Source: Hyphomonadaceae bacterium
GTDB taxonomy: Bacteria; Pseudomonadota; Alphaproteobacteria; Caulobacterales; Hyphomonadaceae
DNA: 64,000 bases
NCBI GenBank assembly: GCA_022760335.1
Contig: JALEGE010000024.1
Location: forward strand, 1 to 64,000
Direction of reading: 5' to 3'
Numbering within the stretch: the first letter of the stretch is position 1; each line of letters begins with the position of its first letter. Below, piece after piece: positions 7,404-59,033 of the stretch. A program made the translations under genes and the position numbers. Below the pieces are notes generated by a model, which saw nothing but the letters and a program-made list of their open reading frames with translations, made no database searches and was not told the DNA's origin.

Positions 7404-8036
7404 ATGTCTGAGCAGGGCGTGGTCGTAAAGGCCGCGCCCCTTTGCGTTTTGCTGATTGATGAAGACCCCGAGCGCGCACGCCAGGTCGAAGACGGGCTGA
7501 TCGCCAATGCCGTTGTCCACACCGCGACCGCCACCCATGGCCGGGTCCTGCTCGATCTCATCGCCCGGATCAGCCCCGATGTGATCATCATGGATTGCAA
7601 TTCCCCCGATCGCGACACGATCGAAAGCCTGCGTCTGGTCGCCCAGTCCAATCCCAAGCCCATCGTCATGTTTGTGGAGGAAGAAGGCGGCGACCGGATG
7701 CACGACGCTATTGAGGCGGGCGTCAGCGCCTATGTGATCGACGGGCTGAAGCCCAAACGCGTCCAGCCGCTGATCGACACGGCCATTGCTCGCTTCCGGC
7801 ATATGGATGGCCTGCGCAATGAGCTGAAGAAGACCAAGGAAGACCTCGCCGCCCGCAAGGTGATCGAACGCGCCAAGGGGCTCCTGATGCAGCATCATGG
7901 CATGACGGAGGATCAGGCCTTTTCCTCAATGCGCACCATGTCCCAACAACAGGGCAAGCCACTCAAGGATGTCGCGGAAAACGTGCTGACCATTGTCGGC
8001 ATGCTGTCCGGCAAGACCGGAAAGGCAGACGAGTGA
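7404..8036 (+). CDS. nasT: ANTAR-domain response regulator (NasT-like)
   Basis: Receiver-like N-terminus (VLLIDEDPERA) and C-terminal ANTAR helix set (RKVIERAKGLLMQHHGMTEDQAFSSMRTMSQQQGKPLKDVAENVL); stop overlaps the nasS-like gene. Confidence 0.85.
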   Translation: MSEQGVVVKAAPLCVLLIDEDPERARQVEDGLIANAVVHTATATHGRVLLDLIARISPDVIIMDCNSPDRDTIESLRLVAQSNPKPIVMFVEEEGGDRMHDAIEAGVSAYVIDGLKPKRVQPLIDTAIARFRHMDGLRNELKKTKEDLAARKVIERAKGLLMQHHGMTEDQAFSSMRTMSQQQGKPLKDVAENVLTIVGMLSGKTGKADE

Positions 8037-49225: not shown

Positions 49226-51787
49226 GTGTTCAACTGGCCTGGAAAATCCAATAGCGACGAGATGTTTCATCCAGCGGCGCTGCACATGCTGGATGTCGGC
49301 GCCTGCGCACTGGAGCTTGGCTTCCCACGCCAGGTTCGGGATCTGGGGGACGAGGTCTGCAATGCGCTCGGCCTTCTCATCGCCGTGCACGACCTTGGTA
49401 AATTCTCGAATGCGTTTCGGTCACAAATACGCGATGGGGCACGACCGCCATCATGGGCGCGCCATTGGGAACTCAGCGATGTGCTTTTTGATGAACATGA
49501 CGCCCTCTTTGCGGAGGCCTTCAATCAGCACCCCAAAGACTCCGGAACGCTCGGCCGCCGACATCGGAGCGTTCGCAAGCAATTCTACAAAGCCGTGGCC
49601 TGGCACCACGGGCGCGTTTCCAGTGGGGGAGAACACTCCGCCCAGCTGAAGTATATCGGCGAAGATGCGCTTGCCGATTCGAAGGGGTTCCTTGAGCTGG
49701 CCATACCGCTGTTCGGTGGCATGGACTTGTCCAGGCTGGAGCTGGCACAGGCGAAAACGCTGTCCTGGCTTGTGAACGGACTGACCTCACGCGCGGACTG
49801 GCTCGCCTCAAATACCACTTGGTTTCCCTTTCAGACCGAGCCCATTGCGCTTGATACGTACTGGAACATCGCCCGTGAGCGCGCCCGCATCGCAGCAAGG
49901 GAATCCGGCCTGGCAGGCGCATCGCCATCGGCGTCTCTTAGCGGGAGCACGCTGGTCGGTGGGCACGAACTTCGGCCCATGCAGGCCGCCGTGGAGGCGG
50001 CCGAGTTGCCTGATGGCCCCGTCCTCGCCCTGATTGAGGATGCGACCGGGTCGGGCAAGACGGAGGCGGCGTTGATGCTCGCCCATCGCATGATGCAGGC
50101 GGGCAAAGGAAAGGGGCTGTTCTTCGCCCTGCCGACAACTGCAACGGCCGATAGCATGTTCGCCAGGATGGAAGGTCAGGTCCGATCGCTGTTCGATGGC
50201 ACGCCATCGCTCTCCCTTGCTCATGGCAGGGCCTGGCTGAACGACAGATTTGCAGAACTGAAAGGTGCCCGGGTGAGCGGATCTCCCGAAGCCTCGTGCG
50301 CAGAATGGCTGGCGGCTGACCGCCGCCGGGCGCTTTTCGCCGAAATTGGCGTGGGGACGGTGGACCAGGCTCTTATGGGCGTCCTTCCGACACGTTTCCA
50401 GGCGATGCGACTGGCCGCGCTCTCTGAACGGATCATCATTGTCGATGAAGCTGCCTTTGGTCCTTATATGGCGCGGGAGGCGGAAGCGCTGCTTGAAGCG
50501 CAGGCGGCGTTCGGCGGTTCCGCGATAGTCATGACGGCGACCCTGCCGCTAGCCCTGCGCAAGAGATATGCCGCGAGCTTTGCGCGTGGGGCGGACGCGG
50601 CCGTTAAGGACCTGGATGATGCGAGTTGGCCAGCGCTCAGCCTCGTATCGAAGCACGGTGTTTCCCAGACATCCGTGACGCCAGTCTCGGCTACGTGTCG
50701 ATCGGTCAAGGTTCGACGGCTTGCCGATCGGGAAGCCGCACTGAACTTGCTTGCTGATGCGGCCAGCAAGGGTGCGGCCTGCATCTGGGTGCGAAACGCG
50801 GTGGACGAGGCGGTCGATGCGACCCTGGCGCTCCGGGCACGGGGTATCGAGGCCGACCTCCTCCATGCCCGCTTCACCCTGTATGACAGGGCCAAGCGGG
50901 AGGCCGATATGCTGCGGCTTTATGGCAAGGACCGCGCGCCACGCCCTGGGCGCGTTCTGGTCGCAACGCAGGTCATCGAAAGCTCGCTTGACCTCGATGC
51001 CGACGTGATGGTCAGCGATCTGGCCCCCATGGACAGTCTGATCCAGCGCGCAGGCCGGCTTTGGCGGCACATGGACAGACGCCCGGCCGATGAGCGCGCG
51101 ACAGCCAAGTCGGTTCTCCACATCCTGTCACCTGATCCTGGCATGGTCACCTCGAACTGGCTTGAACCCACGCTTGGAAAGGGCGCCTGGGTCTATCCAG
51201 CCGATCACCAGTGGCGCACGGCAAACATGCTGTTTCGTGAAGGCGAGATCAGGACGCCGGAACGGTTGCGATCGCTGATGGAGGCTGTCTATGGAGAGGA
51301 AGGCGACATTGCCGAAATGCCTGAACGGCTTTGCGCGGCCGAACAGGAAGCCGAAGGCCAACGGTTCGGTGAACGCAGCTCTGCGAACATGAACGTGATC
51401 GAGCTGTCGAGAGGCTTTTCCTCGGTCAGCAATGGCCTCAGCCAGGATGACCCGGCTGTCGGCACGCGGCTGGGCGAACCCCAGATACCTCTGAAGCTTT
51501 ACCGGATGGAGGCCGATGGGCCGGTCTGGTGGTCGGGCCGCGCAGGCCGCCGCGATGAGGCGCTGAGCACGATCCAGCTTCGCGAGACCCTGTTTAACCG
51601 GAACATCGGTGCGGACCAGCGCGGTACGATCCCGGGCGAAGCCGAACCGCTGGTGGCAGACTGGAAAGACTGGCAGCGCGCCGAAGGCCTCGTGGCGCGG
51701 GTGAATGACGATGGCAGCCTGGAAGGGCTGCCGGGCTTGCATTATTCGCCGGAGGCTGGTTTAAATGTGGTCCCGTTATCGGGCTGA
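49226..51787 (+). CDS. cas3: Type I-E CRISPR-associated helicase/nuclease Cas3
   Basis: HD domain (FHPAALHMLDVGACAL...AVHDLGKFSNAFRS), helicase EDATGSGKTEAALMLAHRM, IIVDEAAFGPYM, TQVIESSLDLDADVMVSDLAPMDSLIQRAGRLWRH; GTG start. Confidence 0.95.
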   Translation: MFNWPGKSNSDEMFHPAALHMLDVGACALELGFPRQVRDLGDEVCNALGLLIAVHDLGKFSNAFRSQIRDGARPPSWARHWELSDVLFDEHDALFAEAFNQHPKDSGTLGRRHRSVRKQFYKAVAWHHGRVSSGGEHSAQLKYIGEDALADSKGFLELAIPLFGGMDLSRLELAQAKTLSWLVNGLTSRADWLASNTTWFPFQTEPIALDTYWNIARERARIAARESGLAGASPSASLSGSTLVGGHELRPMQAAVEAAELPDGPVLALIEDATGSGKTEAALMLAHRMMQAGKGKGLFFALPTTATADSMFARMEGQVRSLFDGTPSLSLAHGRAWLNDRFAELKGARVSGSPEASCAEWLAADRRRALFAEIGVGTVDQALMGVLPTRFQAMRLAALSERIIIVDEAAFGPYMAREAEALLEAQAAFGGSAIVMTATLPLALRKRYAASFARGADAAVKDLDDASWPALSLVSKHGVSQTSVTPVSATCRSVKVRRLADREAALNLLADAASKGAACIWVRNAVDEAVDATLALRARGIEADLLHARFTLYDRAKREADMLRLYGKDRAPRPGRVLVATQVIESSLDLDADVMVSDLAPMDSLIQRAGRLWRHMDRRPADERATAKSVLHILSPDPGMVTSNWLEPTLGKGAWVYPADHQWRTANMLFREGEIRTPERLRSLMEAVYGEEGDIAEMPERLCAAEQEAEGQRFGERSSANMNVIELSRGFSSVSNGLSQDDPAVGTRLGEPQIPLKLYRMEADGPVWWSGRAGRRDEALSTIQLRETLFNRNIGADQRGTIPGEAEPLVADWKDWQRAEGLVARVNDDGSLEGLPGLHYSPEAGLNVVPLSG
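51737..51765 (+). promoter_or_regulatory. Weak sigma70-like promoter candidate inside the cas3 3' end, upstream of the crRNA-like element
   Basis: TTGCAT-N17-TTTAAA. Confidence 0.3.
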
Positions 51788-51821
51788 CCCAGTATGTCTG
51801 GGAGTCGCTTCGACAGTGGCT

Positions 51822-51882
51822 GTGTAGTCCCCCGCAACGCGGGGCTAAGGTATGTCTGGGAGTTCAAGAGGGTTGACAAAGC
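51822..51882 (+). ncRNA. crRNA-like element: degenerate CRISPR repeat with intact Cas6e-type hairpin plus spacer-like tail
   Basis: gtgtagtcCCCCGCaacGCGGGGctaaggta compared with array repeat gtgtcCCCCGCacctGCGGGGctgaaccg: identical 6-bp stem, loop one nt shorter, altered 8-nt handle. Isolated, ~6.3 kb upstream of the array, between cas3 and cas8e. Confidence 0.6.
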
Positions 51883-51901
51883 CTGACCTCAGGCGTAAAC
51901 A
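51873..51901 (+). promoter_or_regulatory. Candidate sigma70-like promoter for the cas8e-cas2 operon or a leader RNA
   Basis: TTGACA (51873-51878), 17-nt spacer containing the CCTGA-CC-TCAGG inverted repeat, TAAACA (51896-51901). Confidence 0.5.
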
Positions 51902-51951
51902 AAAAAACCCGGCACCGAGATGAGCTTAGAAATCATACCTCGGCGCCGGGT
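51901..51951 (-). terminator. Terminator-like hairpin on the minus strand (same stem also forms on the plus strand)
   Basis: acccggcaccgag ... ctcggcgccgggt inverted repeat (12 of 13 positions paired); read on the minus strand it is followed by TTTTTTTGTTT. Confidence 0.6.
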
Positions 51952-52004
51952 CAACTTGTACTCAAACAAACGGAGGCAGATCCAGTTATGACCTTAAGCG
52001 CCTA

Positions 52005-52046
52005 GGCTGTTTGATGGGCTGGATATAGTCTAGCCCATCAACAGCC
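52005..52046. other. Strong inverted repeat/hairpin in the cas8e leader
   Basis: ggctgtttgatgggct / agcccatcaacagcc, 15 bp with one bulged T, ~11-nt loop. Confidence 0.75.
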
Positions 52047-52106
52047 GCAAACAAAATTTCGCGCCGCCTCGCGCGGCATTGAATTTATTTTGCAACTAAC
52101 ACTCTC

Positions 52107-53690
52107 ATGAACCTCAACCTGATTTCAGACCCGTGGATCCCCGTACGCACACGGCAGGGCAAGCGGGTGATCGCGCCTCATGAAATTGCCGATCCGGACG
52201 TCCTGTTTCCGGACTGGCCGCGGCCGGATTTCAACCTGAACACGCTGGAGCTTCTTATCGGTCTGGTGAGCCTCGCCGTAGCGCCTCAGGAGGAACACGA
52301 ATGGTACGAGATTGGAGCGGAGATAGACCCTTCGTCGCTGGCGAAGCACCTGGCTCCGCTTACGCCCTTCTTCAACCTGCTGGGCGATGGTCCTTATCGC
52401 TTCATGCAGGACCTGGACGACATTGAGGGCTCCGCCAACCCCGCTGAAGCCCTGCTGATCGATGCCGCTGGCGAGAATACCAGCAAGAAGAACGCCGATC
52501 TCATGGTGCATCGGGGGCGCCATGAAGGTTTCGACCTGCCGACCGCTGCCATCGCCCTTTATACACTGCAGAACAGTGCCCCCTCCGGCGGCGCAGGCAA
52601 TCGCACCAGCCTGCGCGGTGGCGGGCCCCTCACCACGCTGGTTATCCCCAATGACGCCCCAACGCTCTGGGATATTGTCTGGACCAATGTCCCCATTGGC
52701 ACGTCCTGCCAGGACGAGGCGTCCATAAAGGCCGCCCTGCCCTGGTGCCGACCAACGCGCACCTCAGAGAAGGGCACTGGAGAGGTCACCTCCCCCCCGA
52801 ACAGTGAGAAGCGAATATCACCTGAAGTCTTCTTCGGCATGCCGCGACGCATTCGGCTGCGCGCGACTGAAGGCCTCGTGACAGGCTGGGCGCAAGTCCC
52901 CTGGGGGACGAACTATTCCCACTTTATCCATCCACTGAGCCCCTATTATGCGAACGAGAAGGGCAAACCGCACGATCCTCCGCTACTCCCGATCCACCCC
53001 AAGCCCGGAACGCTCAGCTATCGCGACTGGCTCGGCCTCAGCCTCAGGCGCCCTCCCGGTGAAGGCGGCGAGGTCGCACGATGCGTCCAGGAGGCCGAAG
53101 CAAAGCTCGACCGAGACGACGCCCAAAACCGCCTTCTGGTGGCTGGCTGGTCGATGAAAAACATGACGCCCGTGGACTTTCAGTGGAGCGAAATCCCGCT
53201 GCAGCTTGGCATGTCTCCTGATGCGGAAGACACGGCCCGGCAAATGGTGGATGCCGCCAGCCTCGCCGCATCCTTCCTCGTCAAACAGCTCGGTGTCGCA
53301 CTGAACCTCGAGGCAGGTGACGCCGCCGCCATCGCGCCAGAGCGCGAGGCGTTCTTCCATGACACCCAAAGCGCGTTCGAGGAGGCGCTGTTGCATCTCG
53401 CACGCGGCGGCGATGCTGATCAACTGGCTCAGCTGAAGGCGGAATGGTTCCGCACGATCGAACGCGCTGCCCTTCGGCGATTCGATGCTGCGGTTCTGCC
53501 GGGGCTTGCCTTGCGCGACATCTCTCACCCGTCCCAGCGTGCCGATGCGAAGAAAATCCCCCCCGGCTCAGCTGAGGCTGTGGCCCGGGCGCGCGAAAGC
53601 CTGCGCAAACAGCTCTGGAGCAAGAAAATGCTGACCGACACGCTCGGCGTCGCGAAAGAACAAATCACCAAGAGCAAGGAGGTCGCATGA
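52107..53690 (+). CDS. casA: Type I-E Cascade large subunit Cas8e/Cse1
   Basis: N-terminus MNLNLISDPWIPVRTRQGKRVIAPHEI typical of Cse1; position after cas3. Confidence 0.95.
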   Translation: MNLNLISDPWIPVRTRQGKRVIAPHEIADPDVLFPDWPRPDFNLNTLELLIGLVSLAVAPQEEHEWYEIGAEIDPSSLAKHLAPLTPFFNLLGDGPYRFMQDLDDIEGSANPAEALLIDAAGENTSKKNADLMVHRGRHEGFDLPTAAIALYTLQNSAPSGGAGNRTSLRGGGPLTTLVIPNDAPTLWDIVWTNVPIGTSCQDEASIKAALPWCRPTRTSEKGTGEVTSPPNSEKRISPEVFFGMPRRIRLRATEGLVTGWAQVPWGTNYSHFIHPLSPYYANEKGKPHDPPLLPIHPKPGTLSYRDWLGLSLRRPPGEGGEVARCVQEAEAKLDRDDAQNRLLVAGWSMKNMTPVDFQWSEIPLQLGMSPDAEDTARQMVDAASLAASFLVKQLGVALNLEAGDAAAIAPEREAFFHDTQSAFEEALLHLARGGDADQLAQLKAEWFRTIERAALRRFDAAVLPGLALRDISHPSQRADAKKIPPGSAEAVARARESLRKQLWSKKMLTDTLGVAKEQITKSKEVA

Positions 53691-58089: not shown

Positions 58090-59033
58090 GTGTCCCCCGC
58101 ACCTGCGGGGCTGAACCGTGAGCCGGGAAGAGGCTGAGGAAATCCTGACCGTGTCCCCCGCACCTGCGGGGCTGAACCGACATATCAGGAAGCCGAGAAG
58201 GTGCGCCAGGAGTGTCCCCCGCACCTGCGGGGCTGAACCGGCCCCGCCCTTGGTGGGCCAGGTGTCTTCCCCGTGTCCCCCGCACCTGCGGGGCTGAACC
58301 GCGAGCGCGCCCAGTTCGGTGGCGCTCAGGCCAGTGTCCCCCGCACCTGCGGGGCTGAACCGGGCGAGGAGTTCGACGACTATGTCGAGGCGACGTGTCC
58401 CCCGCACCTGCGGGGCTGAACCGGTGACCGCCTCACCGGGCCTCGCCCAGCCATGGTGTCCCCCGCACCTGCGGGGCTGAACCGTTGAGAAACGGGTGAC
58501 CGGCGTGGCGCCGCGCGTGTCCCCCGCACCTGCGGGGCTGAACCGTCATCGTCTGCCGGAACAGTGTCGGTGAGCAAGTGTCCCCCGCACCTGCGGGGCT
58601 GAACCGGCGACGTCTTCGTCGGCGAGGTTCGCTGCCGCGTGTCCCCCGCACCTGCGGGGCTGAACCGCCAGACCTGTCGCGCGGAAGCGGTGTCAATGCG
58701 TGTCCCCCGCACCTGCGGGGCTGAACCGGACAGGGATTTGCCGTTCAGCGCCCAGCTTTCGTGTCCCCCGCACCTGCGGGGCTGAACCGGATATTCCAAC
58801 GGAATCCGCTTCGCGCGCAGAGTGTCCCCCGCACCTGCGGGGCTGAACCGAGCACAGCCAGCCTCTCGGCTCACCTCCCCTCGTGTCCCCCGCACCTGCG
58901 GGGCTGAACCGCACTACACAGCGGTCATTGACGGCGTGCTATAGTGTCCCCCGCACCTGCGGGGCTGAACCGCGGCCGCAGAACATTGCCAAGATGTTGC
59001 CGGAGTGTCCCCCGCACCTGCGGGGCTGTATTC
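58090..59033 (+). CRISPR. Type I-E CRISPR array, 16 repeats of 29 bp and 15 spacers of 32 bp
   Basis: Repeat gtgtcccccgcacctgcggggctgaaccg at exact 61-bp period (58090, 58151, ... 59005); last repeat diverges at its 3' end (ggggctgtattcg). Confidence 0.99.

What the first reader, a model, noticed from the sequence alone, without database searches (positions are those of the whole stretch)
51873..52106. Possible toxin-RNA or leader transcript with a Shine-Dalgarno and a 5-codon ORF upstream of cas8e
Seen: TTGACA-N17-TAAACA, then hairpin acccggcaccgag/ctcggcgccgggt, then GGAGG (51972-51976), then ATG ACC TTA AGC GCC TAG (51988-52005), then a 15-bp hairpin (52005-52046), then ~60 nt to the cas8e ATG. 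A strong ribosome site feeding a minimal ORF followed directly by a stable hairpin resembles the CreT arrangement (ribosome/tRNA-sequestering mini-ORF), and TTA is expected to be rare in a GC-rich genome. It could instead be an attenuator or leader controlling Cascade expression. Assignment is inference.
Basis: partly seen in the sequence, partly recalled or inferred. Interest (0 to 1): 0.68.

Follow-up and report, generated by a model that had tools for sequence, protein, structure and literature searches.

The report
CRISPR-guarded RNA toxin beside cas8e
Between two CRISPR genes this bacterium carries a degenerate two-repeat mini-CRISPR whose guide matches the promoter of a tiny five-codon RNA, which by its anatomy is a CreTA-type RNA toxin-antitoxin pair (type I-E) that would make the cell dependent on its own CRISPR machinery; the toxicity itself is untested.

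Summary
The CreT reading is well supported, once a part outside the given coordinates is added. Immediately upstream (51767-51849), overlapping the cas3 stop codon, lies a degenerate mini-CRISPR: PsiR1 (8-nt handle CTGACCCA), a 32-nt PsiS, and PsiR2 (stem nearly identical to the array repeat). The first 14 nt of PsiS recur at 51850-51863 directly after an AAG PAM. The 32-nt protospacer (51850-51881) covers the TTGACA -35 box. This is the CreA-target-promoter arrangement of CreTA. Downstream come a +1 hairpin, GGAGG, ATG ACC TTA AGC GCC TAG and a 19-bp hairpin. TTA is the rarest codon in the window (14 of 15,367). The same slot in other alphaproteobacterial type I-E loci holds the same module: 21 loci (window included) have AAG-flanked targets, and guide-target matches dip at positions 6, 12 and 18, the signature of Cascade pairing. 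Nine of the 21 pass a strict SD + mini-ORF + hairpin rule (0.14 expected). GGAGGCAGATCCAGT is identical in Paracoccus aestuarii CreT. Toxicity, Cas6e processing and repression are inferred, not shown. Main rival: CreR-like cas autorepression with a harmless leader. CreTA is known from I-B and I-F; I found no held paper on type I-E or a UUA codon.

The parts
49226..51787 (+). cas3 (type I-E helicase/nuclease); its stop codon TGA 51785-51787 lies inside the PsiR1 handle
   Evidence: NCBIfam cas3_core/cas3_HD; coordinates; handle/stop overlap
51767..51791 (+). PsiR1, degenerate CRISPR repeat GTGGTCCCGTTATCGGG-CTGACCCA; 8-nt 5' handle 51784-51791 matches array handle CTGAACCG at 6 of 8
   Evidence: weak hairpin, z -1.2
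51792..51823 (+). PsiS, 32-nt spacer-like guide of putative CreA RNA (same length as the array's 32-nt spacers)
51824..51849 (+). PsiR2, degenerate repeat GTAGTCCCCCGCAACGCGGGGCTAAG; GTCCCCCGCAAC-GCGGGGCT aligns to the array repeat with one mismatch and one gap over 21 positions
51847..51849 (+). PAM AAG directly 5' of the target (overlaps 3' end of PsiR2)
   Evidence: AAG also in 20 other loci when any PAM is allowed
51850..51881 (+). CreA target (protospacer); first 14 nt identical to PsiS (51850-51863); covers the -35 box
   Evidence: only AAG-flanked hit in the 64-kb window; the only other seed copy in the genome is preceded by GCT, not AAG
51873..51901 (+). putative PcreT: -35 TTGACA (51873-51878), N17, -10 TAAACA (51896-51901)
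   Evidence: TTGAC/TTGAA lies within 46 nt of the target start in 17 of 21 loci; generic scan negative
51907..51951 (+). hairpin at the predicted transcript 5' end
   Evidence: -25.2 kcal/mol, z -5.4; similar hairpins at the same place in relatives
51972..51976 (+). Shine-Dalgarno GGAGG, 11 nt before ATG; part of 15-nt block GGAGGCAGATCCAGT (51972-51986) identical in P. aestuarii CreT
51988..52005 (+). creT mini-ORF ATG ACC TTA AGC GCC TAG (MTLSA), with TTA the rarest codon
52005..52046 (+). 19-bp hairpin directly at the mini-ORF stop codon
   Evidence: -32.4 to -32.7 kcal/mol, z -7.3
52059..52077 (+). small GC hairpin followed by T-rich tract, weak terminator-like site between creT and cas8e
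52107..53690 (+). cas8e (cse1/casA), followed by cse2, cas7e, cas5e, cas6e, cas1e, cas2e to 58006
   Evidence: NCBIfam
58090..59033 (+). CRISPR array, 16 repeats GTGTCCCCCGCACCTGCGGGGCTGAACCG, 61-nt period, last repeat degenerate

Best explanation
[quoted passage not shown] Upstream, overlapping the end of cas3, a degenerate two-repeat mini-CRISPR (51767-51849) gives a crRNA-like antitoxin RNA, CreA, predicted to be cut by Cas6e and loaded into Cascade. Its seed pairs with an AAG-flanked site (51850-51881) over the -35 box of the creT promoter. Because the match is partial, Cascade is expected to sit there and block transcription rather than recruit Cas3. If Cascade is lost or inhibited, the promoter at 51873-51901 fires. 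It makes a short structured RNA with a hairpin at its 5' end, a strong SD, and a five-codon ORF holding the rarest codon (TTA), ended by a stable 19-bp hairpin. By analogy with haloarchaeal CreT, repeated initiation on this mini-ORF would sequester a scarce tRNA (here tRNA-Leu UAA) or tie up ribosomes, arresting growth and so making the cell depend on its Cascade genes. Shown by sequence: repeats, seed match, PAM, promoter overlap, SD/ORF/hairpin, rarity of TTA, recurrence in relatives. Inferred: transcription, Cas6e processing, repression, toxicity, and which tRNA is hit.
For: (1) An unbiased scan finds exactly one repeat-handle/spacer/repeat-stem plus seed-matching AAG target in this gap. 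It is the only AAG-flanked hit in the 64-kb window. Under the strict rule 0 of 40 shuffles of the gap pass; over all loci 11 hit against 0.0 expected. (2) The same slot in 20 other, mostly alphaproteobacterial, I-E loci carries it. With any PAM allowed, 31 loci hit against 4.6 in shuffles, and 21 of these have AAG. (3) Guide-target matches over 24 loci: positions 1-5 23-24/24, 6 8/24, 7-11 19-24/24, 12 9/24, 13-17 14-21/24, 18 9/24; Fisher P 2.9e-5 for 12+18 versus 13-17. This is the every-sixth-base pattern of Cascade pairing. (4) SD + mini-ORF + hairpin: 9 of 21 modules against 0.14 expected. (5) Aligned to seven relatives, every mini-ORF has TA in the same column, giving ATA or TTA. (6) GGAGGCAGATCCAGT is shared exactly with the CreT of Paracoccus aestuarii plasmid p296221. 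(7) TTA is the rarest codon; one tRNA-Leu(UAA) gene found. (8) The anatomy matches experimentally studied CreTA: two divergent PsiRs, seed 1-5 and 7-11, SD/mini-ORF/stem-loop (PMC8501985).
Against: Nothing is measured. The mini-ORF has one TTA, not the tandem rare codons of the two haloarchaeal toxins. tRNA-Leu(UAA) may also read TTG (153 in the window). Pooled rare-codon enrichment is strong against gene codon usage (P 2e-8) but only marginal against local base composition (P 0.08). The -10 box is weak. PsiR1 folds poorly. There is no strong terminator before cas8e, so the transcript may also be the cas8e leader.
Confidence: 0.8

Rival explanations
1. CreR-like autorepression: the crRNA-like RNA guides Cascade to the promoter of cas8e itself, and the mini-ORF and hairpins are just a 200-nt untranslated leader. 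Cascade would thus limit its own synthesis, with no toxin.
For: No other convincing promoter or strong terminator between creT and cas8e. Several short-gap I-E loci have the same guide/target with the target close to cas8e (51-112 nt in L044, L071, L075) and no mini-ORF; also L170. CreR is reported as widespread in type I (review PMC12737573). In H. hispanica the cas6-cas8 region holding creTA carries a strong promoter for downstream cas genes (PMC9458426).
Against: A pure leader does not explain the recurrent SD + 3-10 codon ORF + immediate hairpin (9 of 21 against 0.14 expected), the ATA/TTA at one fixed column, or the near-constant 251-284 nt target-to-cas8e distance in most mini-ORF modules. 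Both functions could coexist.
Confidence: 0.15
2. Translation-dependent attenuator or leader peptide: ribosomes on the MTLSA ORF, sensitive to leucyl-tRNA(UAA), decide whether the downstream hairpin stops transcription into cas8e.
For: Leader ORF with a rare leucine codon next to a hairpin.
Against: The 52005-52046 hairpin is followed by CGCAAACAAAA, not a T-run. Relatives use ATA, AGA, AGG or ACA instead of leucine codons. Attenuation does not explain the CreA target.
Confidence: 0.03
3. The repeats are a decayed remnant of a second CRISPR array and the 14-nt direct repeat is a chance duplication.
For: The PsiR sequences are degenerate and resemble the local array repeat.
Against: Seed matches with AAG PAM recur in unrelated PsiS sequences of 21 loci with mismatches at positions 6, 12 and 18; decay or duplication would not produce that.
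Confidence: 0.02

Closest known systems
CreTA of haloarchaeal type I-B systems (Haloarcula hispanica, H. hubeiense; PMC8501985)
   Same: Two divergent degenerate repeats flanking PsiS, 8-nt handle best kept in PsiR1, seed 1-5 and 7-11 match to a PAM-flanked promoter site, mini-ORF with a minor codon followed by a stable stem-loop, location beside cas genes.
   Different: Type I-E with AAG PAM; placed between cas3 and cas8e; creA lies upstream of PcreT and its first handle contains the cas3 stop codon; minor codon is UUA (Leu), single, rather than tandem AGA or AUA; strong hairpin at the predicted transcript start.
CreTA of Acinetobacter type I-F (PMC10097628)
   Same: Also found in the gap between cas3 and the first Cascade gene of a bacterium; SD + mini-ORF; two PsiRs; partial match next to a PAM.
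   Different: I-F, CC PAM, creA divergent from creT; toxicity of that CreT is not explained by codon rarity.
CreR cas-regulating RNAs (review PMC12737573)
   Same: crRNA-like RNA guiding Cascade to a promoter upstream of cas genes.
   Different: CreR is generally not coupled to a toxin; here a mini-ORF/hairpin unit stands between target and cas8e.
CrePA (protein toxin under CreA control; review PMC12737573)
   Same: Same control logic.
   Different: No protein gene in the window's gap; some relatives in the same slot do carry small ORFs (L063, L105, L119, L081).

Membership tests
CreTA (type VIII toxin-antitoxin) | creA with one or two degenerate CRISPR-repeat-like sequences near cas genes | tested here: met
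   PsiR1 and PsiR2 at 51767-51849; handle 6/8; PsiR2 stem aligns with one mismatch and one gap over 21 positions
CreTA (type VIII toxin-antitoxin) | PsiS seed (1-5, 7-11) matches a PAM-flanked site at the creT promoter, partial overall | tested here: met
   10/10 seed, 14 contiguous, little match beyond; AAG PAM; overlaps the -35 box
CreTA (type VIII toxin-antitoxin) | creT with efficient translation start, mini-ORF with minor codon, stable stem-loop | tested here: met
   GGAGG, 5-codon ORF with TTA (14/15,367), 19-bp hairpin; only one minor codon
CreTA (type VIII toxin-antitoxin) | CreA RNA matured by Cas6 with 8-nt 5' handle | not testable with these tools
   needs sRNA-seq with and without cas6e
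CreTA (type VIII toxin-antitoxin) | CreT is toxic when Cascade is absent and silenced when present | not testable with these tools
   needs transformation or induction assays
CreTA (type VIII toxin-antitoxin) | toxicity through sequestration of the minor tRNA | not testable with these tools
   candidate is tRNA-Leu(UAA), one gene found among 39 tRNA hits
CreR (cas autoregulatory crRNA-like RNA) | target lies in the promoter that drives the cas operon, with no toxin gene in between | tested here: inconclusive
   Target is 257 nt from cas8e with a mini-ORF/hairpin unit between, but no separate cas8e promoter or strong terminator was identified
Rfam families | match above gathering score to a known RNA family | tested here: not met
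   No match near threshold; best 16.8 bits against a gathering score of 46

The most novel reading that the evidence does not exclude
The cas3-cas8e gap of alphaproteobacterial type I-E systems is a general cassette slot for Cascade-repressed poisons. The window's member would starve the cell of a leucine tRNA (UUA), a codon not reported for CreT in the papers read here. Sister loci carry ATA, ACA or AGA mini-ORFs, small proteins, and in one case (Sandaracinobacter, L100) a tRNA-like gene with anticodon ACU and an Arg-like D-arm that could mistranslate Ser codons.
Probability: 0.45. Interest if true: 0.75.

Novelty: new variant of a known kind. Interest (0 to 1): 0.62.

Why it matters
CreTA explains why costly CRISPR systems are kept and how cells respond to anti-CRISPRs. 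The papers I could read describe it in archaeal I-B and Acinetobacter I-F. A widespread type I-E form puts it in a very well studied CRISPR subtype and in culturable bacteria such as Paracoccus aestuarii DSM 19484, where deletion of cas6e or cas8e with and without the module is a direct test. The dips at positions 6, 12 and 18 also give a simple comparative test that such mini-CRISPRs act as Cascade guides.

Tried and rejected
Cas8e alone as query in genome contigs found no relatives; a Cas7e alignment found 409, of which 80 were kept. First reading of the 14-nt repeat, with PsiR2 as leading repeat and the upstream copy as target, was rejected: the upstream copy lacks a good PAM or promoter, and PsiR1 with its 8-nt handle was then recognised. 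Minus-strand reading (hairpin 51908-51951 followed by T7 on the minus strand looks like a terminator): no plausible minus-strand gene by inspection. Rfam: nothing. Intergenic DNA in 60 related genomes and in plasmids: no nucleotide-level match, so conservation is mainly architectural. Exact matches to GGAGGCAGATCCAGT in two other genomes of 385 are about what chance gives and were not used. Pooled rare-codon test against local composition is only marginal (P 0.08) and is not used as proof.

Full report
WHAT IS THERE. The window holds a complete type I-E locus on the + strand: cas3 49226-51787, cas8e from 52107, cse2, cas7e, cas5e, cas6e, cas1e, cas2e, then an array of 16 repeats GTGTCCCCCGCACCTGCGGGGCTGAACCG with 32-nt spacers. 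The cas3-cas8e gap is 319 nt. The -35 box is perfect; the -10 box (TAAACA) is weak, and a generic promoter scan does not list the site. The RNA from 51907 folds far better than shuffles (z -6.4), with hairpins at 51907-51951 (z -5.4) and 52005-52046 (z -7.3, 19 bp).

THE MISSING PART. The gap also contains sequence resembling the array repeat: GTCCCCCGCAACGCGGGGCT at 51827-51846. The 14-mer GTATGTCTGGGAGT occurs at 51792 and 51850. The arrangement resolves as PsiR1 (51767-51791, ending in the 8-nt handle CTGACCCA, array handle CTGAACCG) - PsiS (51792-51823, exactly 32 nt) - PsiR2 (51824-51849) - AAG - target (51850-51881). The TGA inside the handle is the cas3 stop codon. The protospacer covers TTGACA (51873-51878). 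A scan requiring handle, stem, seed positions 1-5 and 7-11 and a plausible PAM finds only this candidate in the gap. It is also the only AAG-flanked hit in 64 kb on both strands. The one other seed copy in the genome is preceded by GCT, not AAG.

RELATIVES. Cas7e searches of whole genomes and a Cas7e profile search of genome contigs gave about 90 further type I-E loci, mostly alphaproteobacterial. Their cas3-cas8e gaps are mostly either about 45-180 nt or 240 nt and longer. Under a strict rule 11 loci (window included) contain the guide/target unit against 0.0 expected from shuffles. Under a looser rule with any PAM, 31 loci hit against 4.6 expected; 21 of the 31 have AAG, although AAG was not required for detection, and ranking hits without any PAM preference gives the same count of 21. 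As a real-sequence control, 2.7 Mb outside these gaps and arrays gave 305 any-PAM hits, with AAG not among the commonest trinucleotides listed. Matches between PsiS and target over 24 loci fall at positions 6 (8/24), 12 (9/24) and 18 (9/24) but stay high between them (Fisher P 2.9e-5 for 12+18 versus 13-17). Position 6 was ignored by the scan, and positions 12 and 18 were not used by it at all. Every sixth nucleotide is not paired in Cascade R-loops (established knowledge; also PMC8501985), so this is direct comparative evidence that these are Cascade guides. The window itself matches without a break through 14 nt, so it does not show the dips.

THE TOXIN SIDE. After the target, 9 of 21 modules (including the window) have SD, a 3-10 codon ORF and a strong hairpin right after the stop; shuffles give 0.14. 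Mini-ORFs include ATG AGA ATC TTA ATA GCC TAA (L053, Paracoccus), ATG CAG ACC TTA AGA GTC TGA (L090, Tropicimonas), ATG ACC ATC AGG ATA TAA (L028), ATG GGT CCG ATA TAA (L092) and ATG ACA ACA TAA (L115). In an alignment of the window with seven relatives chosen for an NTA codon or close SD similarity, the T-A of that codon is invariant, so ATA or TTA stands in the same column; L106 and L115 have neither codon. The 15 nt GGAGGCAGATCCAGT (51972-51986) is identical in the CreT of Paracoccus aestuarii DSM 19484 plasmid p296221, found in an independent set. There the start is GTG and the rare codon is ATA; here GTG is GTT, the ATG is one codon later, and TTA takes the place of ATA. TTA is the least used of 61 codons in the window (14 of 15,367). 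One tRNA-Leu(UAA) gene was found among 39 tRNA hits. Rare codons are strongly enriched against gene usage (P 2e-8) but only marginally against local composition (P 0.08), so the fixed-column pattern is the better argument, with the selection caveat just given.

MECHANISM AND MEMBERSHIP. These features match CreTA as defined experimentally in haloarchaea: two divergent PsiRs, the first keeping the 8-nt handle; seed 1-5 and 7-11; PAM; SD or AUG-driven mini-ORF with minor codon; stem-loop (PMC8501985). They also match the Acinetobacter I-F case in its cas3-csy1 gap (PMC10097628). All sequence-testable criteria are met. Cas6e processing, repression and toxicity cannot be tested here. The main rival, CreR-type autorepression of cas8e, is the likely reading of some sister loci (L044, L071, L075, with targets 51-112 nt from cas8e, and L170). 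It could coexist here because no strong terminator or separate cas8e promoter was found.

NOVELTY. None of the papers I could read in the held library describe CreTA for type I-E or a UUA-based CreT. The 2021 Science supplement was not available, so I-E members may already have been predicted. I rate it a new variant of a known kind.

Noticed in passing
L100:4000-4374 (Sandaracinobacter neustonicus NZ_VFSU01000006): In the cas3-cas8e gap, the CreA-like target (AAG, 9/10 seed) lies over a minus-strand promoter-like site (TTGAAA-N17-TATGTT) of a 77-nt tRNA-like gene with encoded CCA, anticodon ACU and short variable loop, D-arm like tRNA-Arg. It could be a Cascade-repressed mistranslating tRNA.
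   Followed up: partly
L063 about 1868-2059; L105 7393-7653; L119 about 7436-7610; L081 7363-7470; L033 (reverse-complemented coordinates) about 2411-2584: In the CreA-like slot of these loci the downstream gene is a small ORF instead of a mini-ORF: HTH-like or basic peptides, a DUF1508 protein (E 2.8e-5) and a 35-aa hydrophobic peptide. Candidate CreP-type protein toxins. L033 has only a single repeat-like hairpin and no scored target.
   Followed up: partly
L044, L071, L075, L170, L167: Short-gap type I-E loci with the same guide/target unit close to cas8e and no mini-ORF, often with ATG, AAC or AAA instead of AAG; probable CreR-type autorepressors.
   Followed up: partly
window 51901-51951: A7 followed by a strong hairpin on the + strand reads as a hairpin plus T7 terminator on the minus strand; A-rich sequence before the first hairpin recurs in relatives. 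Function unknown.
   Followed up: no
window 51785-51787; L028, L092, L100, L075: The cas3 stop codon is the TGA within the PsiR1 handle, so Cas6e cleavage of creA would cut near the very end of the cas3 message.
   Followed up: no
L064, L091 downstream of the mini-ORF hairpin: In these relatives a T-rich terminator-like hairpin follows the creT hairpin before cas8e, suggesting creT is a separate transcript there (by inspection).
   Followed up: no
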